A DNA stretch of 64,000 nt, taken from contig MU129029.1 in the NCBI GenBank assembly GCA_014904985.1, positions 1 through 64,000 on the forward strand. Reading direction: 5' to 3'. The position numbers were made by a program, and so were the translations under genes. The stretch is from Hydnum rufescens UP504. Taxonomy: Eukaryota; Basidiomycota; Agaricomycetes; Cantharellales; Hydnaceae. Of this stretch, positions 9,351 through 62,153 are shown piece after piece (within the stretch, counting starts at the first letter, position 1; every line of letters begins with the position of its first letter). The notes below the pieces were generated by a model that saw only the letters and a list, made by a program, of their open reading frames with translations, was not told the origin of the DNA and did not search any database.

Positions 9351-9395
9351 CAGGCTGGTCAGTCACATGGGGGACCTAATTTAGGTACCACTTTC

Positions 9396-11902: not shown

Positions 11903-11990
11903 GTGTCCTCACATACCAACTGCCTACAAAGGAAAGGCAGGCAGACAACCACACCCACCACTGCAGGTGTGGTCAAAAGGTGAGTTTTTT

Positions 11991-12344
11991 ATTGACCGAG
12001 CTTGCGAGGTCTTATTTACACTTCCCGTTTTTGTTTATAGTGCAAAGTCCCTTGGACCAAACATGGTCACCCCGTGGGAACTTATTTGTAACAGTGCTTT
12101 TGAGCCATGGGCCCTGTGAGAAAAATGGCCACCCTGTGGGAACTGGCATATTTGCTTCCTCAGAACCAAACTGGCTTCTTCAGAGCCAAATTGGCTCGGA
12201 AGACTCAATATTGATAGAAGTAGCCATGTAAACTGATGTAAACTGTGTCAGTCCAATATATATATACATCTAATCTGTCCTTGGAGCCTCTGGCCCCACA
12301 ATAAATAGGATCTGGAGGGTTCTTGGTGTCTGACTGGAGGTCTC
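11991..12344. other. Unassigned sequence between HIM-2 and repeated Copia block
   Basis: No coding frame recognised. The tract near 12250-12310 with TATATATA, a CAATAAATAG-like signal and a GGAG-rich end resembles the 3' part of an LTR, which would suit the Copia fragment that follows. No partner LTR was found. Confidence 0.35.
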
Positions 12345-22451: not shown

Positions 22452-24183
22452 CACCTTGGTCAGTCATCTAAGCCTACCCAGTTAGGTACCATTTCCAGGG
22501 CAGATAATGGTACCTAAGTTGGTCCCATCACTATTCCGGCTGAAATGGCCATTTTTATGATTTCACCTCCTGGCCCAGAATTGGCTGAAATGGCTGAAAA
22601 TTGGCTGAAAATTGGCAGAAACTGGGGCTTGGGGAATCTCAGACTTGCAGTGGGCCATACAGGCTTATCAGGGATAATGTGTTCCATTTATAATTATTTA
22701 TTTATTATCACTATATTATACATATGCTCCCTGGGGTCAGCAGGGTTTCAGTCCTGTGTTTTGTTTTTATTGACTTGTTTATTTATTTATTTATTTAAAA
22801 ATTCACAAAAAACATACCACACACCTTGGGCAGGCATGTGGTACTGTCTATAAAAATTAAACAAAAAAAAACACTATTTACACACCTGCTTGGGCAGGTG
22901 TGGTACCAGGGATGTCATTTTGTGCTTCACCATTGGGGTTCCCCCTCACCCATGGTCACAAGTTTTCACTCAGTGGGGTCATGGCTTCAGTTGGGGGATG
23001 CAGGTTCAGAAGAATACCTATGATGATAAATAATAAGTTAGTTAAAAACAGAAAAACCAGGCAAAAGGAGCAGCCCCTGCTGCTCCTTTTGCATAGTTGG
23101 ACATGTACATATATACTAACCTTAAAGGTTACCACACCCACTTTGGTGGGTGTGGGGTTTGTCTGGGGCTTGTGTCATGGTTTTGACTCATTGCCATTCA
23201 TGGGGTTCATTTGGTGGGTTGGTCATCATTCTCCCATGTTCATTCAGCAGGGTCATGGGTATTGGGTCCAGATGACAAACTAAAATAATAAATAATACAT
23301 TAAGTAAAAAAAAAATACAAGAAAAGCCACACAAAAGGAGCAGCCTACACTGCTCCTCTTGTGTGGTTGTACTCACCTTAAAATTACCACACACCCACTT
23401 CAGTGGGTGTGTGGTACTCACTTTTGCACCATGGTCATGGGTGGGTTGCAGGTTGTGGGTGGCTCCACATGTCCCTTTTTTGTGTGGAGGTTTTCACACT
23501 GGGAGAGGGCCTAGATCAATCAGTAAATAACATGTTAATTTTTCTAAAAAAATACAAAGGAAGCACCAAAAGAGCAGCTTCTGCTGCTCTTTTGGTGCTT
23601 TCATGGGTCTTGTAATTGAAAACTTACAGGGTATTACCACACACCTGCCACAGCGGGTGTGTGGTACACAGTTTTGTTGATTGCCATGTTCAGGGGGCAG
23701 CCCCTCTCCACTTGGGTGGCTGCACATACTGGGGGCTCACCCATGTGCTTGTCAGGTGGGTTTTCACAGGGGGAAGGAACCTAGAACAATAAATAATAAT
23801 ACATGAGTAAAAAAAGAAAACAGAGGTGCCAAAAGAGCAGCTTCTGCTGCTCTTTTGGCACTGGTGGGATGAGACATACCTAATATTACCACACACCCAC
23901 TGAAGGGGGTGTGTGGTACTGATTTTGCACCCTGGTCATGTGCTTTGTACTTGGTTTTGCATACGGAAGGGTGTCTGTTGGGGTGGGTCATCATTTCAGG
24001 AGGCTTGATTTGAATCCTACAATGATAGTGTATGTTAGTAAAAAAATTCAAAGTGACACAAAAGGAGCAGCTTGTGCTGCTCCTTTTGCATTGCTGTGCT
24101 GTCAGGGCCACACTGCGATGAGAGCACCAAACAAATATAAACACAGATAATTCCAGCTAAGTCTGGTGTAAGTCTGGCTAAGT
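22452..24183 (-). mobile_element. HIM-3: left arm of a hairpin-intron element
   Basis: It starts with a divergent HIM terminus (CACCTTGGTCAGTCAT) and the GGTACC inverted subterminal repeat (22485-22515). Five minus-strand intronic hairpins (about 23059, 23330, 23573, 23827, 24055) alternate with exonic hairpins (about 22810, 22880, 23125, 23388, 23638, 23889). Donors on the minus strand include GTTAGT, GTGAGT, GTAAGT and GTATGT; acceptors are TTCTAG or similar. The order and sequence of modules mirror the right arm of HIM-8 (57950-59250), so both arms of an intact element are inverted copies. The core and right arm are replaced by the solo LTR at 24188. Confidence 0.75.
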
Positions 24184-24187
24184 CCAG

Positions 24188-25828
24188 TATAGCAGAAGGG
24201 TTGGGAGCTCTGATGACTGTCAAATCAAAATCTGGTTCAGCCAGTGTGTAGATGGGAGACTGTGTTTCTGTTTATTTGAATGGGTTGGTTCACTTCAATG
24301 GTTGATCACTCTCTGCAAGATATGTATGTGTTTATTGGAGAATGGAATGTGATATGGACTAGCAATAGTCAATGATATATCGTAGATGCTTATAGGAAGG
24401 CTTATACATCGTATGGAATGCTTTATAGAAAGGCTTATATGTGGAAGATGCTTATGGAAAGGCTTATACATCTGGGATGCTTGTGGAAAGGCTTATACAT
24501 GTTTGTGTTGTGTTTGTTTGTTTACTGATATTTGTGTGTCCTTGTTTACATCCTCCTAGTCAAAATGCAGATATCTATGGGTTATAGAATGGTCAGTGCT
24601 TGGTTAGTTTTGTTAGTATGCTTACCTTTTCCTTGGATGTCCAGCAACTCTAACCTTAGGTTCTGCAACTATCCTTGGCTTCAGTATTTTGTGTAGATGG
24701 CTTCCAGTAACTTGGTCTCAACAACCTTGAAGATGACTTAGCTCCAGATGGCTTTAGATAGACAGTTCTTTTTTAGATCATAAGCAGAATGGTTGACAGT
24801 AGTTGACAGTGGTTGATTTCCAGAGTGAGGAGATGGGGGGGTACAAGAAAATATGCTAGCTTATATACCTATCTGAAGGTGGCTGTGCATGGAGTAAGAA
24901 CAAAAGAGTAATAAAGCTATGAGATCATAGTGATGTCATGGGGGAGTCATAGTGGAGTAGAACAAAAGAGGAATAAAGAAATGATGTCATAATGTGGTCA
25001 TAGCTGAGTCATCCATAGAGTGTGATGTCATAGTGATGTCATTCATAAAGAGAACAAAAGGATTCATAAAGGGAATGATGTCACTAATTTGCTGAGCTTG
25101 TGGAGTAGTTGGAGCATGATGTCACTGGTCTTGTGATGTGTTTTGGAGCTCATGGGAAGCGAAATTAAGGGACATCTCCAGGTTTTGGAGATTAATTTGA
25201 ACATAGTCCAATGGTTAAGGTGTTTTTGTTGCTGGGTGATAATGGAAACAAGTGCATGGGGTGGGATTCGATGCAGAAATAGCAATTTGCATCCGTAATA
25301 GACATTCTTGGTATCATTTGATGTGGATTTTTAACAGCTTTCTGGGCGTGGTGATTTTGAGCAGATTGGATGCGAACTGACAGAAATTCATTTTTTACTG
25401 ATGGGTGTTGATTCTGATAGTAATATCATTCTGTAGAGTTCAGTTTTGATCTGTTCTTTGCATGCTCAGTACCGTTGGATGCGGAGTTTTCATATCTTTC
25501 TAGGCACAGTCGTTCCGAGAGGATTGAATGTGAACTGATGGAGATATTCGTTTGTTACTGGAAATATCAGATTTTGATAGTAAAATTGGCCTGGAGAGTG
25601 CAGTTTTGGTCTGGTCGACTTGTGTTTGGTACCGTTAGAAAGGTGTGAATCGTAGCTTTCTAAGCGTTATATGGGCGTACCTCTCCGATCAAAACTGACA
25701 GAGTTATAGAACACATTTCGTTTCCATGCATAGCCATAATTAATTTCGTAATTGGTCATGTGATCATTCAAAGGCTGGAAGTGGTATGATTTCGCATTTT
25801 CTGATACTGGATGTTTTTATCTTCCACA
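24188..25828 (-). mobile_element. Solo LTR, family B, copy 1
   Basis: 1,641 bp running, on the minus strand, from TGTGGAAGATAAAAACATCC to CTGCTATA. It is flanked by a 4-bp duplication CCAG (24184-24187 and 25829-25832). It holds three or so tandem copies of a 160-bp unit near the TG end, recognisable from CTTTCTGGGCG and ACTGACGGAG at about 25338, 25496 and 25656. No protein frame. A solo LTR is inferred from the TG start, direct duplication and absence of internal sequence. Confidence 0.75.
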
Positions 25829-25832
25829 CCAG

Positions 25833-26390
25833 GAGGATCTGGGCAAGAATGAGATAATGAGGATGGGAGGGGATGGAGAGGCAGTCCAGCAGCCTGGAGG
25901 GGACTAGGCAGAAATGAGCACAGCAGTCCTTAAGCTCATGGAGTCAACTGGAAAGTACTCAGACCTATAGTCCAGAGTAACAGTGGAAATCCTGAGACTA
26001 TGTAATATGAATACAGAAGACATGAAGGCTGACCTGTAGTCTGGAGTAACAGTGGAAATCCTGAGAGACCAAAGCTGGGGTCTCTGGACTTCACTCTTGG
26101 ACTACTTATACATGATGACTATACTACAGGGGAGTGATCACTAAACTGGGGGTGGTTACAAGGGGGACAGGAACAGGAACAGGAACTCAGCCAGGGGGCA
26201 AACTGGAAGCAATGGGAAATGAAAGGGAAATGAAAAGGAAATGAAACCAAGATAGGGTTGGACCAGAGTCAAATGGGAATCAAGCCAGAAGCAAGGTGGA
26301 CTTGGGCAAAGGAAATAAGCAGAGAACTGGACTGGAGGTGGGTGGACAAGGACTGGAGTTGACTGGAGTAAGGGGCAAACCCTGACATGT
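25833..26390. other. Unassigned sequence with short direct repeat
   Basis: A purine-rich stretch. A 30-bp motif ending AACAGTGGAAATCCTGAGA occurs at about 25967 and again at about 26035. GGAACA repeats lie near 26170. No gene seen. Confidence 0.4.
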
Positions 26391-28026
26391 GCATATAGAA
26401 ATTTAAAAAAAATTTACCTTGTTGTACCACACATTTGGTTTTGGCCTGGGGGTTGGCAGGGGTTGTAGGCAGGTGAAAATCTAGGAATAATGCATTAGTA
26501 ACATAAAAAAATAAAAAAATAAAGCCATGCAGGAGGAGCAGCATATGCTGCTCCCTTTGCATGATTATACTTATCTTGAAATTACCACACACCCACTGAA
26601 GCAGGTGTGTGGTTTGTCTGGGGTCCCTGGGCCTTATCATGCATCCTCATTTCTGGGTTTTGTTTTGCAGGTTGTGTTTGCAACTCTCCATTGGCAGGTG
26701 CATTGTCATTTCCAATGGGGGGGGGGGGTTTGTTTGATGTGTGGTTTGGGTGAGAGCCTAGAATACAGAATTATTAGTTAAGAAATTAAAAGTGACACAA
26801 AAAGAGCAGCTTTCACAGCTCTTTTTGCATGGCTGCATCTATTAGGGGGGAGGAGACTCACCTTAAATATACCACACCCACCACAGTGGGTGTGGTTCCT
26901 GGGCCCACTCATTGGGCAGCCTGTCATTGGTTTTGATCTGGAGCAATAAAGGCTATGTTAGTATAAAAATTCACAGCAGCACAAAAAGAGTAGCTGGTGC
27001 TACTCTTTTGTGCTATTGTATTTACTGAGACAAAAATTACCTTATGACACACCTGCATCAGCAGGTGTGTGGTCCTGTGGTCATGGTCATGTGGTTGTGG
27101 TCATGTGGTTGTGGTCATGCAGTTGTGGTCATGTGCTGTTGCTGTTGCTGTTGTGTCTTGGTCATGCAGTCACTTGGTGGGTGGTGTGGCTGCATAGAGT
27201 TGCAAAATAGTTCAATGCTGGCAATTGCTGATACTCAAGAAGTGCTGCAAGCACAGTACACAATAGTACCAAGCATGTATCTTATAAATAAATACTATAT
27301 AATAAAAATTTGTCCAGGAAAATCTGAAGAAGATGATGGTAATGAGTCAGAGCTCAATAAGGCATGAGTACAGAAGGGATTGGGCCACTTCTACACATCA
27401 GAATTGGCCCAGATTTGAATATAGTAGTGTTATATATACACTCTACATGGGCAATTAATTATCTCAGACAACAATCACATTTTTCAATTTTTTGTGCCTT
27501 CAATTCCCTAAATAGGGAATTGAAGGCATGAAAAATTGAAAAATGCAATTATCATCTGAGATAATTAATTGCCCATGTAGAGTGTATATATAACACTACT
27601 ATATTCAAATTTGGGCCAATTCTGATGTGTAGAAGTGGCCCAATCCACTCTGTATTCATGCCTTATTGAGCTCTGACTCATTACCATCATCTTCTTCAGG
27701 TTTTCCTGGACAAATTTTTATTATATAGTATTTATTTATAATATACATGCTTGGTACTATTGTGTACTGTGCTTGCAGCACCAGCACTTGGGTGCTTCTT
27801 GAGTATTGGCAATTGCTGGCATTGAATCTGCATCTTGCTTCCTATCTCCCCAACCACAACAAGCAGCCACCTGAAAAGGCAAGCACACAACCACACACCC
27901 ACCACTGTGGCTGTGTGGTCACAAGGTGAGTGTTTTTTCTAGTAGATACAATGGTGCAAAAAGAGCAGCGAAAGCTGCTCTTTTTGCACTGCTTTGGAAC
28001 ATTTTACTAACATCTCTTTATTTATT
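26391..28026. mobile_element. HIM-4: hairpin-intron element with palindromic core, both ends truncated
   Basis: Minus-strand modules (intronic hairpins about 26525, 26790, 26975; exonic hairpins about 26583, 26873, 27046) lead to a palindrome (27213-27824). One plus-strand module follows: exonic hairpin about 27892, donor GTGAGT at about 27925, hairpin about 27955, CTAAC and an ATTCAG acceptor. HIM-5 inserts at 28027, exactly after TTTATT. The left end is cut inside an exonic hairpin. In the hairpin near 26985 both sides of the stem changed together (GAGTAG with CTACTC). Confidence 0.8.
27213..27824. repeat. Palindromic core of HIM-4
   Basis: Inverted repeat with about 300-bp arms centred on CCCTAAATAGGG near 27512. 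The arms contain TATATATAACACTAC and GAGCTCTGACTCATTACC blocks conserved in position with the cores of HIM-2 and HIM-7 but diverged in sequence. Confidence 0.95.
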
Positions 28027-44165: not shown

Positions 44166-44170
44166 CAATT

Positions 44171-44290
44171 GGGGGCCAGTTCCATTTGGGTGCACCCTTG
44201 AGGGGGTCAGTTTTCATTCGTGGGGGCTTGTTCACAGTGTCATTTGGCAGGTTTGTATTTCAGGGTTCATGTGGGTTCTGGGCCAGGATC
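44171..44290 (+). mobile_element. HIM-5, continuation after the retrotransposon
   Basis: GGGGGCCAGTTCCATTTGGG continues the HIM left subterminal region seen uninterrupted at 55700-55850. HIM-6 inserts at 44291, after CCAGGATC. Confidence 0.8.
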
Positions 44291-45517
44291 CAGGCTGGTC
44301 AGTCAAATTGGGGACCTAATTAGGTACCATTTTCAGGGCAGAAAATGGTACCTAATAGGTCCCCAGACAGTATGGCTGAAATACAGCCGAAATACAGCCA
44401 TTCCAATTCATTTCAGCCAATCCATGGCTGTGCTAGATTATATATTTATTTATTATTATTATTACTACTATAATTATATACATATTATGCTATATACATA
44501 TTATCCTGGGGTCTGCCACCACAGGGGGGCATGGTTCCTGCTGGTCATGCACCTGCATATACCCACCACACCTGCTGCAGTGGGTGTGGTTCATTTGCCC
44601 CAGTTGGGGCCAGTTCCATTTGGGTGCTACCTCAAGGGAGTGGGTTTTTGTTTGCAAGGGCTTGTTCATGGTTTTCATTCCCAGCATGTCATTTGGTGGG
44701 TTCAGAGGGGGTTTGTGCAGATTCTGGTCAAGGATCTATAGAAATAAGGAATTCAATGTTAGTACAACATTAATGCAACACAAAAAGAACAGCTTATGCT
44801 GCTCTTTTTGTGCCACAAGACTAAGAAATAAAAAAAACATAACACATACCTTGTACCCCACACCCACAGGTGTGGGGTACTGGGGCCATGCATGCTGGCT
44901 CATCCATATGCCAGTGTGTACATATGCCAGCTCATATGCATGGCAGTTCATATGGGTCCCCCATTGTTTGGGGGTTGATAGGCAGGGTTACAGGGGGTTC
45001 TTTGTCAGTATTTGTTCATGAGGGCAGTTGAAACCTACAAAATATTATTTTTAAATTAGTTAGGAAATAAGGGCCACACAAAAAGAGCAGCAAAAGCTGC
45101 TCTTTTTGCATGGCTGTAGCTACTGAGGGGGGCAGGGACTTACCTGATATAGAACCACACACCCACCGGGGCAGGTGTGTGATTCCATGCCCTCATTTGG
45201 TGTGCTGCCATGGGCTTTGGTGCAGTCATGTTGTTGGCCCATTGCTGTGTCATGTTGGTGTATCATGTTGCTGTGTATCATGTTGCCATGTATCATGTTG
45301 CCATGTCACATTGCCATGTGGCATGTCGCTGTTTGGGCTTTCATCATTTCATGGGTTATCATCCTGCATTGGATGGGCCCCAATCTAGAATAATGCATGT
45401 CAGTAAAAAAAAAATTCCAAAGCAGTGCAAAAAGAGCAGCTTACACTGCTCTTTTTGTGCCACAAGAATAAAAAATGAAAAGAAATATTACTTTGTAGTA
45501 CCCCACACCTGCTGCAG
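44291..45517 (-). mobile_element. HIM-6, left arm
   Basis: Left terminus CAGGCTGGTCAGTCAA, subterminal repeat, then minus-strand modules with intronic hairpins at about 44771, 45075 and 45424 and exonic hairpins at about 44855 and 45152. Donors are GTATGT and GTAAGT. A third exonic hairpin is cut in its loop by the LTR-B fragment at 45518. Confidence 0.8.
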
Positions 45518-46977
45518 TGAAAGGCTTATACATAGGGGATGCTTGTAGGAAGGCTTATACATCATGTGGGATGCTTATAGGAAGGCTTGTACATCTGGGA
45601 TGCTTGTGGAAAGGCTTATATGTAGGGGATGCTGGTAGGAAGGCTTATATGTTGTTCATGTTGCATTGGTTCATTTACTGATATTTGTGTATTCTTGTTT
45701 ACATTCTCCTGGTCAAAATGCAGATATCTGTGGGCTACAGACTGGTCAGTGCTTGGTTAGTCTTGTTAGTGTCTTTCTTCCTTCTTTCTTCAAAACCTGA
45801 TTCATATTTTGTTATGCTTACTTTTCCTTGGATGTCCAGCAACTCTAACCTTAGGTCCTGCAACTATCCTTGGCTTTAGTGATTTGTGTAGAAGGCTTCC
45901 AGTGGCTTTGTCTCAACAACCTTGAAGATGACTTAGCTCCAGATGGCTTATAGATAGACTGTTCTTTAGAGGCAAGCAGAAAAATTGACAGTGGTTGACA
46001 GTGATGATTTCCAGAGAGGAGATGATTGTGTGGGGATACAGGAAATCTACCAGCTTTTATACCTTTCTGGAGGTGGCTGTGTTTAAAGAAAATGACTCCC
46101 TCATGGGTGAGTCATATGTGAGTCATAGGTGAGTCATGCATAAAGAGAACAAAAGAAATCATGGAAGGGTGATGTCATAGATGTGTCATAGGTGAGTCAT
46201 GCATAAGAGAACAAAAGAAATCATAGAAGTGGTGATGTCACCAATTTGCTGAGCATGTGGAATGCTTGGAGCATGAGGTCACTGACCATGTGGAGCATTC
46301 TGGGAGGTGAAATGAAGGGATATCTCTGGGTTCTGGAGATTAATTTGAGCATAGTCCAATGGTTAAGGTGTTTTGTTGCTTGTTGATAATGGGGACAAGT
46401 TCATGGGATGGGATTCAATGCAGAAACAGCAGTTTTCATCCGTAATAGATGCTCTTGGTATAATTAGATGCATATTTTTAACAGCTTTATGGGCATGGTG
46501 GTTCTGAGCAGATTGGATGCGAACTGACAGAGAAATTCATAAAATACTGATGGGTATTGATTCTGATAGTAATATCATTCTGTAGAGTTCAGTTTTGATC
46601 TGTTCTTTGCACACTCAGTACTGTCGGATGCGGAGCTTTTATATCTTTCTAGGTGTGGTTGTTCCAAGAGGATTGAATGCAAACTGACAGAGAAATTGGG
46701 TTTTTACTGGAAATCCTGGATTTTGATAGTAAAATTGGCCTGGAGAGTGCAGTTTTGGTCCATTCGACTTGTGTTTGGTACCATTCGAAAGGTGTGAATC
46801 ATGGCTTTCCAAGCATCATATGTGCATACCTCTCTGATCAAAACTGACAGAGTTATAGAATGAATTTGATTTCCACATGTAGCCATAATTAATTTTGTAA
46901 TTGGTCATGTGATCATCCAAAGGCTGGGAGTGGTGTGATTTTGCATTTTCTGATACTGGATGTTTTTATCTTCCACA
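45518..46977 (-). mobile_element. LTR-B fragment, copy 3, replacing the HIM-6 core
   Basis: It matches copies 1 and 2 from an internal GAAAGGCTTATAC to the TG end (CTTCCACA on plus). It lacks the other terminus and any target duplication. It removes the left half of the HIM-6 palindrome. Confidence 0.8.
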
Positions 46978-47764
46978 TCACCCATGTAGAGTGTATATAT
47001 AACACTACTATATTCAAATTTGGGCCAATTCTGATGCATAGAAGTGGCCCAATCCACTCTGTAATTACCCATCTCATGCCTTATTGAGCTCTGACTCATT
47101 ACCATCCTCTTCTTCAGGTTTTCCTGGACAAATTTTCATTATATAGTATTTATTTATAATATACATGCTTGGTACTATTGTGTACTGTGCTTGCAGCACC
47201 AGCACTTGGGCACTTCTTGAGTATTGGCAATTGCCAGCATTGAATTTCAAACTCTACACTGCCACACCCAGCAAGCAACTGTATGACCACAACACAACAG
47301 CAACAGCAGCAGCAACAGTGCATGACCATGACTGCATGACCATGACCACATGACCACACACCCACATCAGCGGGTGTGTGGTCATAAGGTAAGTTTTGCC
47401 TCAGTAAATACAATAGTGCAAAAGAGTTGTGCAAGCTACTCTTTTTGTGCTGCCATGAATTTTTATACTAACATAGCCTCTATTCCTCCAGATCAAAACC
47501 AAAACAACAAATGACAGGCCACCCAATGAGGGAGCCCAGCAACCACACCTGCTGTGGCGGGTGTGGTACTATTTAAGGTGAGTGTCCTCCCCCCTAATAG
47601 ATGCAGCTGCACAAAAAGAGCAGTGAAAGCTGCTCTTTTTGCATTGCATTTAATTTCTTAACTAATAATTCTTTATTCTAGGCTCTCACCCGAACCACAT
47701 GCCAAATGAACCCCCCCCCCCATCAGAAATGACAACACACCCACCAATGGAGAGTCCCAAATGC
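46978..47764 (+). mobile_element. HIM-6, right arm, first part
   Basis: The right half of a palindromic core (46978-47245, starting CACCCATGTAGAGTG as in HIM-4) is followed by two plus modules: donor GTAAGT at about 47391 with hairpin about 47417, and donor GTGAGT at about 47577 with hairpin about 47612. HIM-7 then inserts at 47765, and the arm resumes at 54033. Confidence 0.8.
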
Positions 47765-49349
47765 CAGGCTGGTCAGCCACTTTTCTGCATCATACTAGAT
47801 ATAATGAGCATTGCATTTATTATATCTAACTAGAGGTTTACACCAGGGGGCCCCCGGGGGCCCCTGCAATACAATCAAGGGGCCCCTGGCATTTATTATT
47901 TATTTATTTATTTATTATTATTGTTATTATTCCTATATACATTGATAGGCTTGCCCAGTGGGGCTCACCATGCGCCCAAGAAGAGCAACCACAGGCTGCT
48001 CTTCTTGTGCACTTGTAGCAAAATGAATAAATACATACCTTAAAATGATCACACCCACTGCAGTGGGGGTTACTCTCTTCTCCCCTTGTGCTCATTTGTA
48101 TGTTCACCTGGGTCCTGGCTCATATACTCACATGGGTCCAGTTTGGGCATTCACATGAGGCCTGGTTCCTAGAGTAAAGGATATGTTAGTTAAAATTCAA
48201 AAATGCACAAGAAGAGCAACCTGTGGCTGCTCTTCTTGCATGATTGTCATTATGGGGGGGGGGGAACCTATATTCTAGTACCACACCCACACTGGAGTGG
48301 GCATGGTGCCTCATGGTGCACCTGCACCGGTCATGTGGATGGTGGGGTCTGTGTGGGCTTGTATCCGCTGGTTCATGGATTTGCACAGGGTTCTGTTGTT
48401 GGGGGGTTGCTCATTTGGGGGCTTGGGCAGTCTGTTTCATGTGATCTAGAATCAAAAGATATATAAATCAGAAGTGATGCAAAAAGGGCAGCCCGCACTG
48501 CCCTTTTTGCGCCACATAGACATAGAAATTAGATTTAAAAAATACAAAATGTACATTCTAGTACCACACACCCACTGCAGTGGGGGTGTGGCACCTTGTA
48601 TTGTATCGTTCATTTAGATGGTGGTGTCTATATGGACTCATGCCTGGTTTTTCGTATGGAGGTCTTGCAGGGTATTGTTCAATGTATGGGTGTGGGGGGT
48701 GATACTGTGGTGCATGGGTCTCACACAAGGGTTGAGGAACACCTACAATTTAAAAATATATATGTTAGTACTTAAGTAGTAAGACCAGCACAAACAGAGC
48801 AGCTTTCGCTGCTCTTTTTGTGCAGCTGTATTTACTGGGGGGACACTCACCCTATATAGTACCACACACCCACCACAGTGGGTGTGTGGTTCCTGGAGCC
48901 CTCATTTGGCGTGGTCACATCCTTGTTTGGTGCACTACCATCAGGCACCTTGCCATATGTTGCATTGCCATTTGGTGCATTGCATATGTTGCATCGCACC
49001 TCGTTCGGCACATTGCTGTATGTCATGTTGTTTGGCACATTGCTGTATGTCGTGTTGTTTGGTGCATTACCATTTAGCATGTTGTGGCATATCATGTTGC
49101 CATGGCCCTGGTCATTTTGTGGGGTTTCGTTGTGCCTTGGAGAAGGCCTCAATCTATGGTAATAAACAACATGTTAGTATATGATTCAAAGCAGTGGAAA
49201 AAGAGCAGCTTTTGCTGCTCTTTTTCTGCCATTGTATCTACTCATAGAAATACTCACCTTGTGACCACACACCTGCAGTGGCAGGTGTGTGGTCATGTGG
49301 TTGCCTTTTCAGGTGGTTGTTGTGGTAGCGGAGATGTGGAGGAAGATGC

Positions 49350-50000
49350 AAACTCAATGCTGGCAATTGCTGGTACTCAACAAGCACCCAAGTGCTGGTG
49401 CCACAAGGAGAATACATATTAATAACAAGCATCTGGACCTGTAATAAATACTATACAATAAATATTGATCCAAAAATGTGAAGAAGGTGATGACAATAAG
49501 TCAGGGCTCAACACAGCATGATATGCCTAATTGGAAAGTGGATTGAGCCACTTCTGTGGGTCAGAATTGGCCCCAATTTAAATATATTAATGGTATATAT
49601 GCACCCTATGTGGATGATTATTTATATCAGCTGTTCTGGGCATTTTTCAATTTTTCACACCTTCAATTCCCTAAATAGGGAATTAAAGGTGTGAAAAATT
49701 GAAAAATGCCTGGAACAGCTGATATAAATGATCATCCACATAGGGTGCATATATACCATTAATATATTTAAATTGGGGCCAATTCTGACCCACAGAAGTG
49801 GCTCAATCCACTTTCCAATTAGGCATATCATGCTGTGTTGAGCCCTGACTTATCGTCATTGCCTTCTTCGCATTTTTGGATCAATATTTATTGTATAGTA
49901 TTTATTACAGGTCCAGATACTTGTTATTAATATGTATTCTCCTTGTGGCACCAGCACTTGGGCGCTTGTTGAGTACCAGCAATTGCCGGCATTGAGTTTG
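49350..50000. repeat. Palindromic core of HIM-7
   Basis: About 325-bp arms, centre near 49672 at CCCTAAATAGGG, few mismatches. First exonic hairpins lie 60-100 bp beyond each end. Confidence 0.95.
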
Positions 50001-50087
50001 CACAACCATGCAGCCACACCCAGCAATGCCAGAAAGGCAAGCACATGACCACACACCCACTGTGGTGGGTGTGTGGTACTATTTAAG

Positions 50088-53000
50088 GTGAGTTCCCCTC
50101 TCCCCCAATAGATACTGTGGTGCAAAAAGAGCAGTGAAAGCTGCTCTTTTTGTGCCACATTGAATTTCTTTACTAACACCATTCATTATTATTCTAGGTC
50201 CTGGCCTGGTCCCCAGTGCCAAACGATGAGACCCAACCAGCCAAGGCCCCCATGGCAATGCACCAAATGAAGGCATGAGAGGTGGCAACACAAACCACAC
50301 ACCCACTGCAGCAGATGTGTGGGGATTTCAAGTTAAGTATCTGTACAACTGTGAAAAAGGAGCAGCATATGCTGCTCCTTTTGTGTGGCTTTTCTTTTCT
50401 CTTCTTTTCTTTTTTACTAACATATTATTCATTATTCTAGATTGTCATCTGCAAACCCCCTGCCTAATGAAACCTATGAACATAACCTGCCAAAACCCCA
50501 ACTAAATGACACCCACCCATTATTGGCCCACCAGATGAAACCCATGGTGCAAGACCACAGAAACTGCAGATGGAACCACACCCACTTCTGTGGGTGTGGT
50601 AATATTAAGCTAAGTATCTGTACAACTGTGCAAAAGGAGCAGCATATGCTGCTCCTTTTGCATGGCTTTTCTTTCTTCTTTTTTTTTCTTTTTTGCTAAT
50701 GTATTACTTATTATTCTAGATCCTCATCTGAGTTCACAATGAAGCCCCCTGCCTAATGAAATGTATGAATGTAACCCACCAAAACCCCAACCAAATGAAA
50801 CCTGCATGATCGGCCCACCTGACGAAACCCACAACACAAGACCACAGAAACCACAGATGGAACCACACCCACTTTGGCAGGTGTGGTAATATTAAGCTAA
50901 GTATCTGTACAACTGCTGTAAGCAGGAAACGGAAGATGAATCCAGCTACAGTCCATGAAATGGAAATGAGGACAAAGAATGGGGATCACAGGGCCAATCC
51001 AAATGTTGGGGTCTGAGAGAAAGAGTCTTTGGATGGGTAGAATTGTCCTGTATAGACTGAGCCTATCCAGACAATAAATGAAGGGGGTTGTTAAATCAGG
51101 GAATCACACCCTAGGTCCTCCTCTTGAGAGCCTATCAAAAGTGAGATAAGTGGGGTTTGAGATGTGGAATTTACCCTAACACCAGCAGCAGTTCAACTAG
51201 CTTTTCAACTGGGGATGGGGGAAAGACAATAGAAATTCACATCTCCTGCACTTAATATACATCACAAAAAAATGCTATGGTAACCAGCAGAAAGGTGGAT
51301 TAAGACGAAAATGATGAAAAAAAAATCAAGTCAAAAGCTTCAAAACTGAAGGAGATATTCAATTAACAAGTCAGAATAGGAGAATATGGCCCAACCAAGG
51401 TATTCCTCCTCTTCTACTGAACAAAATCCCTTGAGGAATGGTGGAACTGGTCGCCCTAGATGTACCCTCCATCGGACATAGGTTTCCGGAACCATAATTG
51501 CCTTTAGTAATCAGAAAAGCGGAGGTAAAAGTGAAATGAGCAATGGGGAGACTAAATTACAGAAGGCCAAGTTATAATCCTCTTGTTTTTCCCTTGGTAC
51601 CATTCGATGCGGATTTTCAGCATCTTTCCAAGGGTGGTCTTTTATAACAAATCAAATCAAAACTGACGGAGTTTTTCACGAAATACTGAAGGATAGTGTG
51701 GAACATGAGGTAAAATCAACCTGGAAGATGCAGTTCGCATCCGATAAACGCGTGTGTGGTACCGTTAGACAGGTATTGATCGTAGCTTTCTGGGCGCTGT
51801 CTTTCCGAGTTGATCTGATCAAAAATGAGGGATATATTCATGAAATACTCCTTGAGAATATTGGAATAGCCCCTATTCAACATGTGACAAGTCTGTGAGT
51901 CAAAGTGGGAGTCATGTTATGTAATCCAAGGTCAAATACCACCCTTGAGGCATTTGGATATGCTGATAGTGATACAATAGGTGTACAAAAGTAAGCAAGT
52001 TGAATTGCTATAGCCTGGTTGAACTGGCTTGGAAATAAGTACAATTTGGATGGCCTGTTGAAATACCAAGGATGGACAAATGATTGTCTCATATATAGGG
52101 TGGAGGAAAAGTAAAAAGGACCATGGATCCTGGGATGTGAATCCATGCTATTTGACAGCCAGAGGAATAACAAGTGTGGATATGAGAGAAATGTAGAAAT
52201 ATGGATTCGTTTGAGGAGGTAGTTGGGCCCAGATGAGGTATGTACATAATGGGATTTTATCCCTCCAACACTGCACAAAAGGAGCAGTGTATGCTGCTCC
52301 TTTTGTGTGGCTTTTCCTTTTTCTTTTTTTTTTCTTTTTTGCTAATGTATTACTTACTATTCTAGATCATCATCTGAGTTCACAATGAAGCCCCACCCCC
52401 CTGCCTAATGAAACATATGAATGCAACCTGCCAAAACCCAACCAACAACACCTGCCCACAATTGGCCTGCCAGATGAAACCCATGATGTGAGATGACTGA
52501 AAATGCAGACAGAACCACACACCTGCCGAAGTGGGTGTGTGGTAATTTAAAGGTAAGTACAACAACGCAAAAGGAGCAGTGTATGCTGCTCCTTTTGCCT
52601 GGCTTGTCTTTTTTTTTTTGGTTTACTAACATCCTATTTATTATTCTAGGTTGTCACAACACCCAATCAAGACCCACAACCCTGCCAAATGAAACCTGTG
52701 AGAAGGGAAACCCATGAACCCCGTAAATGACAACCAGCCACCATACCAAGTACAAACTGCACAACTGTGGTACAAAACAAGCAAACCTGCCGAATGAACA
52801 AATGCCCACCCAACCAAAACCCAACATATGAATGCCCACCCAATGCCCACCCACCAAACAAGCATGGGCCAAACAGCCACCCACCAAACAAAACCGCCCA
52901 CACCACACACCTGCCAAAGTGGGTGTGTGGTAATATATAAGGTAAGTAGTGTATGCAACTGTGCAAAAAGAGCAGCAAATGCTGCTCTTTTTGTGCTGGT

Positions 53001-53546
53001 TATAGATTTTCACTGACATCTTATCAATTTTTTCTAGGACATCGCCTGAACCAGAAGCTGCTGGATGAACACATGCCAAATGAGCCCCCCCTCCCAAATG
53101 ACAATCTGCCAAATGAACCCCTGCCCAATGAAAACCCACCAAACAAAGACATGCCAACCACACACCCACTGTGGTGGGTGTGTGGTGATATATAAGGTAA
53201 ATAGATCTAGTGTATGCAACAGCACAAAAAGAGCAGCATTTGCTGCTCTTTTTGCACTGGTTATAAATTTTAACTAACATTTTATCGATTTTTCTAGGAC
53301 ATTGCCTGAATGAGCCCCCCCTCCCAAACGGCAATCCACCAAATGAACAACCACCAAACAAAGACCTGCCCAATCAAAACCTGCCGAATGAAGGACCCAC
53401 ATGAACCACACACCCACTGCGGCAGGTGTGTGGTCCTATATAAGGTAAGTCACCCACAGTAGATACAGCCATGCAAAAAGAGCAGCTTAAGCTGCTCTTT
53501 TTGCACCAGTTCAAATTTCTAACTAACTTGTATCTTATTATTTTAG
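50088..53546 (+). other. Right-arm intron array of HIM-7
   Basis: Introns with good signals: 50088-50197 (GTGAGT/CTAAC/TTCTAG, 110 bp), 52553-52649 (97), 52942-53037 (96, branch CTGAC), 53197-53297 (101) and 53445-53546 (102). Exons between the last ones are 292, 159 and 147 bp. Three further modules have the first donor base changed (TTAAGT at about 50331, CTAAGT at about 50607 and 50898) with acceptor and hairpin kept. Exonic hairpins ACCACACACCCAC...GTGGGTGTGTGGT sit 8-15 bp before each donor. The exons start with CH-coding TGTCAY and contain CCAAATGAA repeats. Splicing is predicted, not shown. Confidence 0.75.
50917..52270 (-). mobile_element. Solo LTR, family C, copy 1, in a HIM-7 intron
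   Basis: 1,354 bp, TGTAAGCAGG to CCTCCAACA on plus, with a 4-bp duplication CTGC (50913-50916 and 52271-52274). It lies between a donor and its hairpin. Read on minus it starts TGTTGGAGGGATAAA, like family B TGTGGAAGATAAAA, and it shares the 160-bp unit (about 51590-51860). Confidence 0.8.
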
Positions 53547-54032
53547 GCCACAATCTGATGAACCAACACCCACATGAGCCCAGCCGAAACCCCCTACATG
53601 GAAACCTGCTGAATGAACACCTGTCTTACCAAACCTGTGACTAAAGATCCACCAAGCAAAGCCCTGAACGAAAACATATGACTGAGGTGAGGCTGAGTGT
53701 AGATTGATGTGTATAATACTTGTATAATAATAATATGTATGAGAATCAACAATAATAAGTAAATAATCATAGTTGCCAATAAGCCTGTATGGCCTGTTGA
53801 CCTGCTTGGGGGCAGCCTACTCCTGTCTAAGTCTTGATTCTTTAAGTCCCAATTTTGGTGAATTTTCCAAGTTCAGAGCCAGGGGCCCCTGGGGCCCCTT
53901 GGCTGAGGGTCTGAAATCACCCCCAGAGGCCCCAGGGGCCCCCACTTAAAAACATCTAGTTAGACTATTTAAATGCAAGGCTCATTGTATCTAACTAGAT
54001 GTACATTTGTGGCTGACTGGGTTGCCAAATGC

Positions 54033-55382
54033 AACCCAGAAATGAGGATGCACGATGCAAGGCCCAGGGACCCCAGATGAACCACACACCCACTTCGGTG
54101 GGTGTGTGGTAATTTCAAGATAAGTATGATTGCACAAAGGCAGCAGCATATGCTGCTCCTTTTGTGTGGCTTTCTTTTTATTTTTTTCTGTTACTAATGC
54201 ATTATTCCTAGATTTTCACCTGCCTACAACCCCCACCAACCCCCAAATCAAGACCTGTGACCCCACTGAAGAAACATGTGAAAACAGAAACACACACAGC
54301 GAACCACCTGCCCACATGACAACCACCCCCAGATGCAAAACCAAATGTGCAGTACAAACGAGTACCACACACCCACTTTGTGGGTGTGTGGTACAACAAG
54401 GTAACTTTTTTTTTAAATTTCTATACACACAGTGATGCAAAAGGAGCAGCACAAGCTGCTCCTTTTGTGTCACTTTGAATTTTTTTACTAACATACACCA
54501 CCATTGTAGGATTCAAATTAAGCCTCCTGAAATGACAACCCACCCCAATGGGCACCCTCCCATATGCAAAACCAAGTACAAAGCACACAACCAGGGTGCA
54601 AAATCAGTACCACACACCCACTTTGGCAGGTGTGTGGTAATATTAGGTGTGTCTCATCCCACTGGTGCCAGAAGAGCAGCAGAAGCTGCTCTTTTGGCAC
54701 CTTTGTTTTCTTTTTTTTTACTAATGGATTATTATTTGTTGTTCTAGGCTCCTTCCCTCTGTGAAAACCCACCTGACAAGCACACAGGGGAGCCCCCAGT
54801 ATGCACAGCCACCCAAGCCCAAAGAGCCTGCCCCCAAAATGACAATTGACAAATGTGTGTACCACACACCCACTTCGGCAGGTGTGTGGTAATATTAGGT
54901 ACATCTAATCATATTGGTGCCAAAAGAGCAGCAGAAGCTGCTCTTTTGGCACCTCTGTTTTCTTTTTTTACTAATGTATTATTATTTACTGTTCTAGGTT
55001 CCTTCCCCCCATGAAAACTCACCTGATGAGCACATGGGCAAGCCCCCAGTATGCGCAGCCACCCAAGCCCAGAGGGCCCTCCCCCTGAACACAGGGATTG
55101 ACAAAATTGCATACCACACACCTGCTGCAGCAGGTGTGTGGTAATTTTAAGGTGAGTACAACCACACAAGAGGAGCAGTGTATGCTGCTCCTTTTGCATG
55201 GCTTTTCTTGTTTTTTTACTAATGTATTATTTATTATTTTAGTTTGTCATCTGGACCCAACACCTGTGACCCTGCCAAACAAACATGGGAGAATGATGAC
55301 CAACCCACCAAATGAATCCCGCCAATGGCAATGAGTCAAAACCATGATGCAAGCCCCAGACAAACCCCACACCTGCCAAAGC
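54033..55382 (+). mobile_element. HIM-6, right arm, second part
   Basis: Rejoins the HIM-6 exon after removal of HIM-7: AGAGTCCCAAATGC then AACCCAGAAATGAGG, which matches the uninterrupted exon on the minus strand of HIM-4 (about 26640-26700). Five plus modules follow, with intronic hairpins at about 54131, 54435, 54665, 54916 and 55164 and exonic hairpins at about 54082, 54362, 54608, 54860 and 55112. Donors include ATAAGT, GTAACT, GTGTGT, GTACAT and GTGAGT. HIM-8 inserts within the next exonic hairpin at 55383. Confidence 0.8.
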
Positions 55383-55400
55383 CAGGCTGGTCAGTCACAT

Positions 55401-55456
55401 GGGGGACCTAATTTAGGTACCACTTTCGGGGCAGAAAATGGTACCTAATAGGTCCC
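55401..55456. repeat. Subterminal inverted repeat of the HIM end
   Basis: GGGGGACCTAATTTAGGTACC pairs with GGTACCTAATAGGTCCC across 20 bp. The same structure occurs in HIM-2, -3, -5 and -6 but not in HIM-7. Possible transposase or hairpin recognition site. Confidence 0.8.
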
Positions 55457-56774
55457 TCAAACCTTACGGCCGAAATCAGCCCATTTCAATTCAGTTTTTT
55501 GGCCATCTGTCAGCCAATCCATGGCTGTGCTATATTATATACTTATTTATTATTATTGTTTACTATTTATTATTATTATTATTATTACTACTATTATTAT
55601 ATACATATTATACTATATACATATTACCCCCCCCCCCGGGGTCTGCCACCACAGGGGGGGCATGGTTCATGTGGTTACATGCCCACATCAGCATATACCC
55701 ACCATACACCCCCAGTCAGGGGCCAGTTCCCTTTGGGCACTCCCTCAAGGGAGTTGGTTTTCATTTGTGGGGGCTTGTTCACAGTTATCATTCACAACAT
55801 CTCATTTGGCAGGTTCATAGTTGGGGGTTCACAGGGGTTCTGGTTCAGGATCTAAAGAAACAATTGATAGAACATTAGTAGAACAGTAATGCAGTGCAAA
55901 AAGAGCAGCTTATGCTGCTCGTTTTGTGCCACAAGAATAAGAAATGAAAATAAAAAATAAAAACATACCTTGTAGTACCCCACACCTGCTGCAGGAGTGT
56001 GGGGGACTGGGGTCATGTACTTTGGGTCATATGTACAGCAGTTCATACAGGGTCCTCTCTGTGCCCTGTCATTCGGGCATCAATAAGTGGGGTTGCGGGG
56101 GGGGGGGGTTTGCATTGGTATTCACTCGCAAGAGAAGTCGAGACCTACAGGATAAGAAATTTAAATCAGTTAATAATTAAACACCATGCAAAAAGAGCAG
56201 CTTTTGCTGCTCTTTTGCATGGGTGTAGCTACTGGGTGGGACAGGGACTCACCTTACATAGGACCACACACCTGCCCTGGTGGGTGTGTGATTCCTGGTG
56301 CCTGCATTAGGTGGGGGTGCATCCTTGTTCAGCATGGTTGCATCCCCATTTGACACGGCCATGTCCTCGTTTGGCATGGCACCACATGTCACATCCTGGG
56401 CATGTTGGCATGGCATGTTGCATTGGCATGGTGTGTTGTGTTGGCATGGTGTGTTGCATTGGCATGTTGTGTTGCATTGGCATTGTGTTGGTGTGTTGTG
56501 TTGCTGTGCTGTGTTTGCATTGGTGTGTCGTGTGGGTTACCATCATGCATTGGATGAGGGCCCAGCTAGAATAATTAAAAGCATGTTGGTAAAAAATTCG
56601 AAAGCAGCACAAAAAGAGCAGCTTTTGCTGCTCTTTTTGCGCTGATGTATCTACTACAATTCATAAAAAAACATACCTTGTATGACCACACACCCACTGC
56701 TGTGGGTGTGTGGTCATCTTTGCCTGCCTGTCTAGGTGGTTTCCTGTTTGGTCAATGTATGCGCATTTTAATCG

Positions 56775-57113
56775 ACTCAACACCAGCAATTGCCAGATCC
56801 CAAAAGTGCTCAAGTGCTGTCACCACAAGTACCATCTAAATTAATAGCCAGTATATAGACAAGGAATATGTTATTATGTAATATATATTTTTCCAAAAGA
56901 TGACAAAGACAACCATAGTAGGTCAGAGCTCAATGAGGCATGAAATGCCTCATTGAGCTCTGACCTACTATGGTTGTCTTTGTCGTCTTTTGGAAAAATA
57001 TATATTACATAATAACATATTCCTTGTCTATATACTGGCTATTAATTTAGATGGTACTTGTGGTGACAGCACTTGAGCACTTTTGGGGATCTGGCAATTG
57101 CTGGTGTTGAGTT
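56775..57113. repeat. Shortened palindromic core of HIM-8
   Basis: Arms of about 168 bp meet at GAGGCATGAAATGCCTC near 56944. Compared with HIM-2 the inner 150 bp of both arms, including CCCTAAATAGGG, are absent; symmetry is kept. Confidence 0.95.
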
Positions 57114-57197
57114 GCATCCTCACATACTGACAGGCAACCACCTACAAAGGAAAGGCAAGCAGATGACCACACCTGCCACTGCGGGTGTGGTCAAAAG

Positions 57198-59150
57198 GTG
57201 AGTTTTTTATACTAGTAGATACAACAGTGCAAAAAGAGCAGCTTTCACTGCTCTTTTTGCGCTGCTTTGAATTTCTTTACTGACCATGTTGATATTCCTA
57301 GGTCATGGCCTTGTCCCAGGCACCAAACGAGGCCCCACCAAAGGATGAGGCCCAACTGCTCAGGTCCTAAATGGCAACATGCAAACCAAAAACAACCCAA
57401 ATGAAGCTGTGCCAAATGAAATGGTGCCAAACAAAACCCCGCCAAGCAAAACACAACAGAACACAGAGGTGGCTGCACGCCGACAGAGTGGCCACACAAA
57501 CCACACACCCACTGCGGTGGGTGTGTGGTTCTATAGGCTAGCAACAAATGAAGACCTGTAGAATGAGCCCCCCCAAATGATGACCCACCCGCAAAACAAG
57601 ATCCACAAACGGTGAGGCACCAAATGAAGAAATCAAGTGATGCCAAGCTGTAGGAACCCCACACCCACTATTGCAGGTGTGGGCTCTATAAAAGGCAAGT
57701 AATGCACCCCTGAGGATGCAGAAAGAGCAGCCATTGCTGCTCTTTTTGTGTTCATTTAAATTTTTAACTAACAAATTATCTATTATTCTAGGTTATTGCC
57801 TCAACCACCCACCAAATGAACCCCCCCTCCCCCGGAAATGACGACTAACCTGCCAAATGAGGGCCACAAACATGACCTGCCCAGGAACAATCACCAAACA
57901 AAACCCATAAATGGGGATGCACAACACAAGGCCCAGGGACCCCAGACAAACCACATACCCGCTTCGGCAGGTGTGTGGTAATTGTAAGGTGAGTACAACC
58001 ACGCAAGAGGAGCAGCATATGCTGCTCCTTTTGCATGGCTTTTCTTTTTATTTTATTTTATTTTTACTAACATATTACTTATTATTGTAGATTGTCATAC
58101 AACAAAGCCCCCCACATAACGCAACCCACCAAAACCTCAACCAAATGAAGCCCACCCACCAGCAGTCCACCAGACAAGACCATGATGCAAGACCACAGGA
58201 AACACAGATGGAACCACACACCCACCAAAGTGGGTGTGTGGTAATATGAGGTATGCCTAATCCCACCAGTGCCAAAAGAGCAGCAGAAGCTGCTCTTTTG
58301 GCACCTCTGTTTCCTTTTCTTTTTACTAATGTATTCTTATTTGTTGTTCTAGGTTCCTTCCCTCCATGAAAACCCACCTGACAAGCACCCAGATGAGCCC
58401 GTAGTATGTGCAGCCACCCAAGCCCAGAGTGCCCACCCCCCAAACACAATGATGGACGATATCACATACCACACACCTGCTGCAGTGGGTGTGTGGTAAT
58501 AACTTGTAAGTTTTCAAGTTTTCAATTACAAGATGTACAAAAGCACCAAAAGAGCAGCAGGAGCTGCTCTTTTGGTGCTTCCTTTGTTTTTTTTTTGGAA
58601 AATTAATGGGTTATTCACTGATTGATCTAGGTACCCTCTCCCAGCACGAAAACCCCTGCACAAAAAAGGGATGTGTGCAGCCACCCACAACCCGCAACCC
58701 AATCCAAGAACCCATGACCATGGTGCAAAAAACAAGTAGCACACACCCGCTTTGGCAGGTGTGTGGTAATTTCAAGGTGAGTACAACTGCACAAGAGGAG
58801 CAGCATACGCTGCTCCTTTTGTGTGGCTCTTGTTTCTTTTTTTACTAATGTATTATCTATTATTTTAGTTTGTGATCTTGACCCAACACCCACAACCCCA
58901 CTGAACGAACACAGGAGAACAACAACCTGCCCACCAAATGAATCCCACAAATGGCAATGAGTTGAAACCACAATGCAAACCCCAGATGAACCCCACACCC
59001 ACCAAAGTGGGTGTGGTAATCTTTATGGTTAGTATATATGTACATGTCCAACTATGCAAAAGGAGCAGCAGGGGCTGCTCCTTTTGCCTGGTTTTTCTTT
59101 TTTTAATGAACTTATTATTTATTATGATAGGTATTCTTCTGAACCCACAT
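57198..59150 (+). other. Right-arm intron array of HIM-8
   Basis: Seven modules with donor, hairpin, CTAAC/CTAAT and acceptor TTCTAG, TTGTAG or TTTTAG. Stems fall in two classes: AAAGGAGCAGC/GCTGCTCCTTT (58003, 58790, 59055) and CCAAAAGAGCAGC/GCTGCTCTTTTGG (58269, 58540). Exons again hold CCAAATGAA-type repeats. Confidence 0.7.
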
Positions 59151-59254
59151 CCCCCAACAAAAGCCATGACCTTGCCGACTGAAAACATGTGGCCACGGGT
59201 GAGGGGGAACCCCAATGGTGAAGCATGAAATGATGTCCATGCCTGCCCAAGCAG

Positions 59255-62152: not shown

Positions 62153-62153
62153 T

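What the first reader, a model, noticed from the sequence alone, without database searches (positions are those of the whole stretch)
47765..59254. Arrays of hairpin-intron modules inside fold-back hAT-like elements
Fifty intronic hairpins across eight element copies occur in a fixed frame: exonic hairpin, donor (mostly GTRAGT or GTATGT), AGAGCAGC hairpin, CTAAC/CTAAT, then TTCTAG. Spacing is steady (introns about 95-115 bp). A non-coding transposon that has amplified what look like spliceosomal introns in tandem, each with its own stem-loop, is not an element type I know. Introner elements are single introns spread by transposition; here the introns are cargo in ordered arrays. Possible roles are splicing help by bringing donor and branch closer, a source of small RNAs, or a gene trap.
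Basis: partly seen in the sequence, partly recalled or inferred. Interest (0 to 1): 0.93.

Follow-up and report, generated by a model that had tools for sequence, protein, structure and literature searches.

The report
Transposon carrying outward-facing arrays of introns
In a fungal genome, a family of jumping DNA elements carries, on both sides of a central mirror-image sequence, ordered rows of hairpin-bearing units with intron signals that evolution has kept although the rows show no clear sign of coding for protein; the units are predicted to be spliced out of RNA, which would make this a new way for introns to multiply and for a transposon to use splicing.

Summary
The window carries about 50 copies of a module: exon hairpin, GTRAGT-like donor, AGAGCAGC hairpin, CTAAY branch site, YAG acceptor. 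A strict module pattern occurs 1,976 times in the 63.2-Mb genome and 0 times read backwards. In 20 of 21 loci fetched by palindrome or ends, modules point outward from the centre; the other is a composite. Three of five elements tested have perfect 8-bp target duplications. Their ends align with ends of KDZ-transposase elements of the same genome, not hAT. Splice signals change far less than flanking intron sequence: acceptor AG 0 internal changes on a 345-module tree, background rate 0.86. Spliced arms show no coding signal in 11 of 12. A public gene model (Hydnum rufescens UP504) fits this window letter for letter and uses one predicted intron exactly and two predicted acceptors. Against: 95 of 301 modules lack at least one canonical signal, a sense-strand G.U test was not significant, and no RNA reads were available. 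Best reading: a non-autonomous KDZ-type transposon whose cargo is two divergent noncoding intron arrays, predicted to be spliced.

The parts
47765..54024 (.). element A, complete: left end, short arm (modules on - strand), palindrome, long arm (modules on + strand), right end
   Evidence: ends and perfect 8-bp duplication CCAAATGC on both sides; array layout
47757..47764 (.). target-site duplication CCAAATGC, left copy
54025..54032 (.). target-site duplication CCAAATGC, right copy
47765..47780 (+). left terminal repeat CAGGCTGGTCAGCCAC
   Evidence: 40 genomic matches listed (capped) for the first 111 bp
54009..54024 (-). right terminal repeat CAACCCAGTCAGCCAC (as read inward)
49347..50002 (.). 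central palindrome, arms of 327 nt, 97% complementary, 2 nt between; inferred bidirectional start of transcription
   Evidence: 79 genomic arm matches, a lower bound
47880..49346 (-). short arm of element A: five modules on the - strand
50003..53760 (+). long arm of element A: eight modules on the + strand (types C A A A A F F M; one A module is split by an insertion and counted twice)
50088..50197 (+). predicted intron, 110 nt, GTGAGT..CTAAC..TAG
52553..52649 (+). predicted intron, 97 nt, GTAAGT..CTAAC..TAG; identical to intron 1 of public gene model BS47DRAFT_1365027
52942..53037 (+). predicted intron, 96 nt; acceptor 53037 shared with intron 3 of that gene model, donor differs (model uses GTGTGT at 52923)
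53197..53297 (+). predicted intron, 101 nt, weak donor GTAAAT; acceptor 53297 shared with intron 4 of the gene model (model donor 53178)
53445..53546 (+). predicted intron, 102 nt, GTAAGT..CTAAC..TAG
52902..52931 (+). example of the exon hairpin (13 bp stem, 4-nt loop)
   Evidence: fold of 52901-53037, z-score -7.8
52957..53001 (+). example of the intron hairpin (GCAAAAAGAGCAGC stem)
44291..47764 (.). element B, left part (left end, modules on - strand, insertion of another transposon, half palindrome, + modules at 47345 and 47503)
54025..55382 (+). element B, apparent continuation of its + arm beyond the nested element A
55383..59254 (.). element C: left end at 55383, short arm, palindrome 56799-57087, long arm; right terminus not found
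56799..57087 (.). palindrome of element C, arms 143 nt, 99% complementary
22878..28026 (.). related element (long arm on - strand, palindrome 27211-27826), interrupted by another transposon at 24187-25829
9351..11992 (.). related element fragment with palindrome 11253-11903

Best explanation
This is a family of non-autonomous DNA transposons with KDZ-type ends, likely moved by a KDZ transposase supplied by other elements, whose cargo is two arrays, without a clear coding signal, of hairpin-bearing modules that point outward from a central palindrome and each hold what is predicted to be a spliceosomal intron. Shown by sequence: terminal repeats, 8-bp target duplications, colinear arrays, hairpins with compensatory changes, and constraint on donor T, branch C-T-A and acceptor AG. 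Inferred: the palindrome would serve as a two-way promoter; each arm would be transcribed outward and its introns (5-8 modules per arm in the four complete copies) removed. The intron hairpin would take about 40 nt out of a 105-nt intron (65 nt left) and so bring donor and branch site together. The exon hairpin is anchored so that its loop lies about 21-27 nt before the splice junction, where the exon junction complex is deposited in other eukaryotes (recalled); it would keep that complex off and spare a stop-rich RNA from nonsense-mediated decay. The benefit to the element would be RNA that is processed like host mRNA, which would keep its chromatin transcribed and open to transposase and avoid the silencing that stalled spliceosomes trigger in a basidiomycete yeast. 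Introns would multiply by tandem duplication of modules within an arm and by transposition of the whole array.
For: Strict pattern 1,976 against 0 control. Modules divergent from the centre in 20 of 21 loci fetched by palindrome (19) or ends (2), the other being a composite of two divergent arrays; over all stretches 34 divergent and 8 convergent junctions. Same module types in the same order: B or C next to the centre in those 20 loci, M outermost in the 6 arms that hold it. Perfect 8-bp duplications in 3 of 5 elements tested, 6 of 8 bases in a fourth. KDZ ends: 100-bp alignment score 75 for element C's left end against a shuffle maximum of 33, 52 against 28 and 45 against 29 for A's ends; KDZ domain inward of 15 of 40 listed ends, outward of 1. 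Constraint: 157 pairs, differences outside CpG contexts 0.011 at AG, 0.021 at branch C,T,A, 0.094 at GT, against 0.23-0.31 in the unstructured rest of the intron; without the profile, 158 pairs, 0.026, 0.045, 0.126 against 0.208; on a tree of 345 modules internal changes 0, 2 and 6, rates 0.00, 0.04, 0.16 against 0.86. Stems 94-96% paired, 27-64% when slid by 1-3 columns; compensatory types such as A-T 261 / C-G 44 and A-T 245 / G-C 72. Coding: in 11 of 12 spliced arms the longest ATG frame is within the 95% range of first-order shuffles; homologous exons of three copies differ by 1 to 8 nt. Gene model: one intron exact, two acceptors shared. Exon-hairpin loop centre -23.5, 5-95% -26.9 to -21.5, 227 modules. 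The genome holds Mago and Argonaute-family (Piwi) domains.
Against: No transcript data were available. Only 206 of 301 modules have GTNNG, CTRAY and YAG together; 69 lack a GTNNG donor, some by changes shared across a subfamily (AAGATAAGT, AAGCTAAGT). G.U was not favoured over A.C in stems: 35 v 35 (exon, non-CpG), 44 v 27 p=0.057 (intron, non-CpG), 90 v 83 and 92 v 89 at CpG pairs, so selection on sense-strand RNA is not shown by that test. One of 12 arms (C2:640859-643927, few introns recognised) has a frame longer than 99% of shuffles (153 aa). Removing the hairpin does not make intron length more even (CV 0.13 against 0.06). The gene model may be ab initio; one of its four introns is not a module intron and two donors differ; its listed contig length (195,476) differs from C121 (189,989). 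A second junction query found no protein. The right end of a KDZ element was not found. The promoter role, the decay and silencing steps are inference.
Confidence: 0.6

Rival explanations
1. The modules are structured repeats kept for their hairpins (in single-stranded DNA or RNA), and the intron-like signals belong to some other bound motif; nothing is spliced.
For: Stems are about as constrained as the splice signals (internal rates 0.11-0.13); 95 of 301 modules lack at least one canonical signal; no significant G.U over A.C bias.
Against: The constrained positions outside the stems are donor GT, branch C-T-A and acceptor AG, with 16-23 nt from branch to AG, while loops and linkers vary freely; a public gene model uses one of these introns exactly.
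Confidence: 0.2
2. The arrays are sources of small RNAs: hairpins or debranched introns (mirtron-like) feed RNA interference, as silencing triggers or decoys.
For: Stable hairpins (z -2.3 to -7.8 in four modules); Argonaute-family domains in the genome; weak likeness to microRNA precursor models, strongest in the palindromes, all below the curators' scores.
Against: The intron hairpin begins a median 31 nt after the donor, unlike a mirtron hairpin, which starts at the splice site (recalled); stem sequence is nearly constant across modules, so the arrays would make nearly one product.
Confidence: 0.1
3. The arms are decayed multi-exon protein genes.
For: A 114-aa gene model is annotated across five exons in element A; 1 of 12 spliced arms has a frame longer than expected.
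Against: 11 of 12 spliced arms have frames no longer than shuffles; homologous exon lengths differ by 1 to 8 nt; exon spacers are the fastest-changing class.
Confidence: 0.04
4. They are introners: units that spread singly into host genes as new introns, here piled up by chance.
For: Intron plus transposon, as in introners (PMC9860276, one passage seen).
Against: The whole array, not one intron, carries the terminal repeats and target duplication; two strict hits that looked single lay in arrays when read (L034, L037). Host genes were not searched.
Confidence: 0.06

Closest known systems
KDZ (Kyakuja-Dileera-Zisupton) DNA transposons
   Same: Ends CAGGCTGGTCA..CAC and, for the type of elements B and C, subterminal TTAGGTACC..GGTACCTAA shared with KDZ-transposase elements of this genome; 8-bp duplication as reported for Zisupton (PMC12730594, passages).
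   Different: No transposase; cargo of intron arrays and a central palindrome. Kyakuja makes 7-bp duplications and has no terminal repeats (same passages).
Introners
   Same: Spliceosomal introns spread by non-autonomous transposons, some with terminal repeats and target duplications (PMC9860276: 49/130 families with duplications, 72/177 with terminal repeats; passage seen).
   Different: In an introner the element is the intron and lands in host genes; here introns are internal cargo in ordered arrays with their own exons.
Foldback / Galileo / Tetris elements
   Same: Large inverted arms with internal tandem repeats (listing and abstract starts).
   Different: Here the repeats are intron modules, the arms flank a near-perfect central palindrome, and the true terminal repeats are short.
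hAT transposons
   Same: 8-bp target duplication (passages name it as usual for hAT); CAG.. start (recalled).
   Different: The same ends accompany KDZ, not hAT, transposases.
Hypoxylaceae stwintrons
   Same: Multiplying, symmetrical spliceosomal introns in fungi (abstract starts).
   Different: They are nested introns integrated at new intron positions of genes, not arrays in a transposon.

Membership tests
non-autonomous TIR DNA transposon | terminal inverted repeats | tested here: met
   CAGGCTGGTCAGCCAC and CAACCTGGTCAGCCAC (with small variations) at both ends of A, C128, C124, C372
non-autonomous TIR DNA transposon | target-site duplication | tested here: met
   8 bp perfect in 3 of 5, 6 of 8 bases in one, none in a composite (C268)
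KDZ transposon | ends shared with elements that encode a KDZ transposase | tested here: met
   (left end of KDZ elements only)
KDZ transposon | right end shared with a KDZ element | tested here: inconclusive
   right end of a KDZ element not located
KDZ transposon | encodes KDZ transposase | tested here: not met
   no such frame in the arms examined: longest ATG frame 153 aa spliced, 203 aa unspliced; hence non-autonomous at most
hAT | ends shared with elements that encode a hAT transposase | tested here: not met
   90 hAT domain hits; 1 within 9 kb of 40 listed KDZ-type ends
introner | the element itself is a spliced intron inserted in host genes | tested here: not met
   terminal repeats flank whole arrays; host genes not scanned
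spliceosomal (U2-type) intron | GT..branch..AG with canonical spacing, under constraint | tested here: met
   206 of 301 with all signals; constraint
spliceosomal (U2-type) intron | removed from RNA | not testable with these tools
   no RNA reads held; one public gene model agrees in part
Foldback element | very long terminal inverted repeats made of tandem repeats | tested here: not met
   the paired terminal sequences of A are 88 bp at 74%; module types of the two arms need not match

The most novel reading that the evidence does not exclude
A new class of transposon that lives by splicing: a DNA element whose only cargo is arrays of selected introns, fired outward in both directions from a palindrome, with one hairpin that folds each intron for the spliceosome and a second, set at the exon-junction-complex site, that strips the mark which would expose the noncoding RNA to decay; in one genome it has multiplied introns to roughly nine thousand copies.
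Probability: 0.3. Interest if true: 0.95.

Novelty: new variant of a known kind. Interest (0 to 1): 0.85.

Why it matters
Intron origin and multiplication are open questions. Here introns appear to be selected, duplicated in tandem and copied by transposition without any evident protein to interrupt, so splicing would serve the transposon itself. That offers a natural test bed (an estimated 8,800 modules, from 1,976 strict hits and 45 strict among 200 sampled modules) for what makes a short intron splice, for whether introns shield transposon RNA from silencing, and for whether RNA structure can keep the exon junction complex off a junction.

Tried and rejected
hAT assignment: rejected. Coding arms: rejected (11 of 12 arms); the first version of that test, (8 of 8 arms), placed several donors one base off, so I repeated it with searched donors. 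Known RNA families: none of the 35 listed matches reaches its family's gathering score (44000-60000 only). Arm-to-arm homogenisation of the palindrome inside each copy: own arms are 94-99% alike, but the best other copy is closer in 15 of 18, so not supported beyond subfamily kinship. Sense-strand RNA selection by G.U against A.C: not significant. Modules inside KDZ elements: three lie about 5.5 kb beyond the transposase on C42, probably a neighbouring array. Tandem promoters (TATATAAG before the donor): set aside because the TATA part is not constant (CACAAGG, TACAACAAGG). Papers: I saw listings and abstract starts; passages of PMC12730594, PMC9860276, PMC7550596 and PMC6643885; the abstract and outline of PMC3744415. 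In these I saw no description of intron arrays in a transposon; (five terms together) found 0 papers; the library lacks most subscription journals.
Full report
What is there. The finding lies in a nested stack of elements. Element A (47765-54024) begins CAGGCTGGTCAGCCAC, ends with GTGGCTGACTGGGTTG and is flanked by CCAAATGC on both sides. Its centre is a palindrome of two 327-nt arms, 97% complementary, 2 nt apart. Left of it the modules are on the minus strand, right of it on the plus strand. Element C (55383-59254) repeats the plan around a 143-nt-arm palindrome; B is interrupted by A and by another transposon; further copies lie at 9351-11992 and 22878-28026.

The module. From 219 seed hits a profile was built; it finds 303 modules in 30 of 33 stretches, and 347 after more stretches were added and the length cut was loosened from 110 to 100 positions. 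Consensus: exon hairpin CCACACACCCGC-TGCG-GCGGGTGTGTGG, linker mostly 7-11 nt, donor GTRAGT, about 30 nt, hairpin GCAAAAAGAGCAGC-4 nt-GCTGCTCTTTTTGC, T-rich run, CTAAY, about 20 nt, YAG. Introns are 105 nt at the median (232 modules with a GTNNG donor). Taking the hairpin out leaves 65 nt at the median (254 modules), but the spread is wider, not narrower, than that of the whole intron (CV 0.13 against 0.06).

How common. A strict pattern has 1,976 matches in the genome and none reversed. In loci chosen by their palindrome or ends, 45 of 200 modules match the strict pattern, which extrapolates to about 8,800 modules; in the window the share is 8 of 51. The figure is rough, as the loci are not a random sample.

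Mobile units. Perfect 8-bp duplications flank A, C128:7808-12780 (ATAAAAAC) and C124:102951-109513 (AGGGAATC); C372:2297-7250 keeps 6 of 8; C268:63185-71212, which holds two divergent arrays, has none. Module order is conserved: C128 and C124 both read M F F A A A A C, palindrome, B C N O R. In 20 of the 21 loci fetched outside the window by palindrome (19) or by ends (2) all modules left of the centre are on one strand and all right of it on the other, pointing outward; the 21st is C268.

Whose ends. The genome has 90 hAT dimerisation-domain hits and at least 154 KDZ hits. An end seen beside a KDZ gene on C1 gave 40 listed genomic matches (40 of 130 candidates scored); 15 have a listed KDZ domain inward at 1.55-3.7 kb on the opposite strand, 1 outward, and 1 a hAT domain within 9 kb. 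The transposase beside one of them scores above the cut-off for Pfam KDZ and CxC1. Aligned over 100 bp, this KDZ end scores 75, 69 and 67 against three module-element left ends (maxima of 500 shuffles each: 33, 34, 37) and 52 and 45 against A's two ends (28, 29). The KDZ right end was not found. Zisupton makes 8-bp duplications; Kyakuja 7-bp and no terminal repeats (PMC12730594, passages).

Are the splice signals kept? Three tests agree. Pairs of modules from different loci, outside CG/TG/CA contexts: AG 3 of 277, branch C,T,A 9 of 424, GT 14 of 149, unstructured intron 0.23-0.31 (157 pairs). With a plain global alignment that does not know the profile: 14 of 541, 37 of 828, 43 of 341, background 1750 of 8401 (158 pairs, both directions). 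On a tree built without the tested columns, internal-branch changes: AG 0, branch 2, GT 6, against 795 over 51 background columns (rates 0.00, 0.04, 0.16, 0.86); loops 1.43, exon spacer 1.55, stems 0.11-0.13. Terminal branches show lower rates at the signals too (0.12-0.20 against 0.58) with a weaker contrast, as expected if single copies decay after insertion. The less strict donor positions +3 to +6 are only mildly constrained (0.59 internal), and branch R and Y not at all (0.93). The donor is the weakest signal: 69 of 301 modules lack GTNNG, some by changes shared within a subfamily; 206 of 301 have all three signals.

Structure. Stems are paired in 94% and 96% of cells and in 27-64% when slid, with double changes such as A-T to C-G at columns 131-158 (261 / 44). 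A test for RNA-level selection, G.U tolerated over A.C, gave no significant answer.

Coding. In 11 of 12 spliced arms the longest ATG frame lies within the 95% range of first-order shuffles; the exception is C2:640859-643927 (153 aa, 1% of shuffles), an arm in which few introns were recognised. Homologous exons of C128, C124 and C12 differ by up to 8 nt, for example 147, 146 and 154.

A public gene model. The proteins related to the KDZ protein named the host: contig lengths 155,211 and 332,720 equal C151 and C42, both Hydnum rufescens UP504. A query across two predicted junctions found one protein, BS47DRAFT_1365027. Its 114 residues fit the window letter for letter at 52493-53309 with four introns: 52553-52649 is the module intron exactly; 52923-53037 and 53178-53297 use the module acceptors with a GTGTGT donor inside the exon hairpin; 52723-52862 is not a module intron. 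Its listed contig length, 195,476, is not that of C121 (189,989), which I cannot explain; in the whole-genome search C121 gave the best match. [quoted passage not shown] A second query found nothing.

How it may work. The exon hairpin is tied to the donor: its loop is centred 23.5 nt before the junction (5-95% 21.5-26.9, 227 modules), while the start of the intron hairpin varies from 15 to 41 nt after the donor. That is where exon junction complexes are laid down in other eukaryotes (recalled). The genome holds a Mago gene and Argonaute-family domains. In Cryptococcus, intron number and position modulate expression cumulatively (PMC3744415, abstract), and stalled spliceosomes can trigger siRNA production (Dumesic et al. 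2013 as cited in PMC6643885, passages). I therefore commit to this model: the arrays make the element's RNA look and behave like well-spliced mRNA, which keeps the element transcribed and reachable by transposase. Transcription, splicing, promoter role and benefit are inferred.

Noticed in passing
window 24187-25829, 36756-38433, 45538-46980, 59254-62905: Another transposon family sits repeatedly in or beside module elements; C128's module element is itself flanked by GAAGATAAAAAC / ATAAAAACATCC, a sequence also found at the edge of that family at 59255.
   Followed up: partly
window 50916-52264: A 1.35-kb insertion splits one module of element A between donor side and hairpin; part of it resembles 60223-60770 (68%).
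   Followed up: no
whole genome: KDZ transposase domains are very abundant (at least 154 hits, 584 first-look candidates).
   Followed up: partly
module stems, columns 69-70/77-78 and 128-129/160-161 of the profile: CpG sites in the stems decay to TG and CA on both strands alike (G.U 90 v A.C 83; 92 v 89), as expected of methylated or RIP-like decay of inserted copies.
   Followed up: yes
L021 (C1:371958-375022) and L079 (C1:44060 on): Runs of N, and garbled-looking sequence beside one of them, inside arrays and a KDZ element: the assembly is unreliable there.
   Followed up: no
window 19488-21898: Reading frames over a 129-bp repeat array (13.9 copies, 80% alike) that looks like WD40 repeats (recalled; the one Pfam call on it failed).
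   Followed up: no
C1:915237-915685: Two element ends 440 bp apart carry flanks ATGAAAAC and GTTTTCAT, reverse complements of each other, perhaps from an inversion between elements.
   Followed up: no
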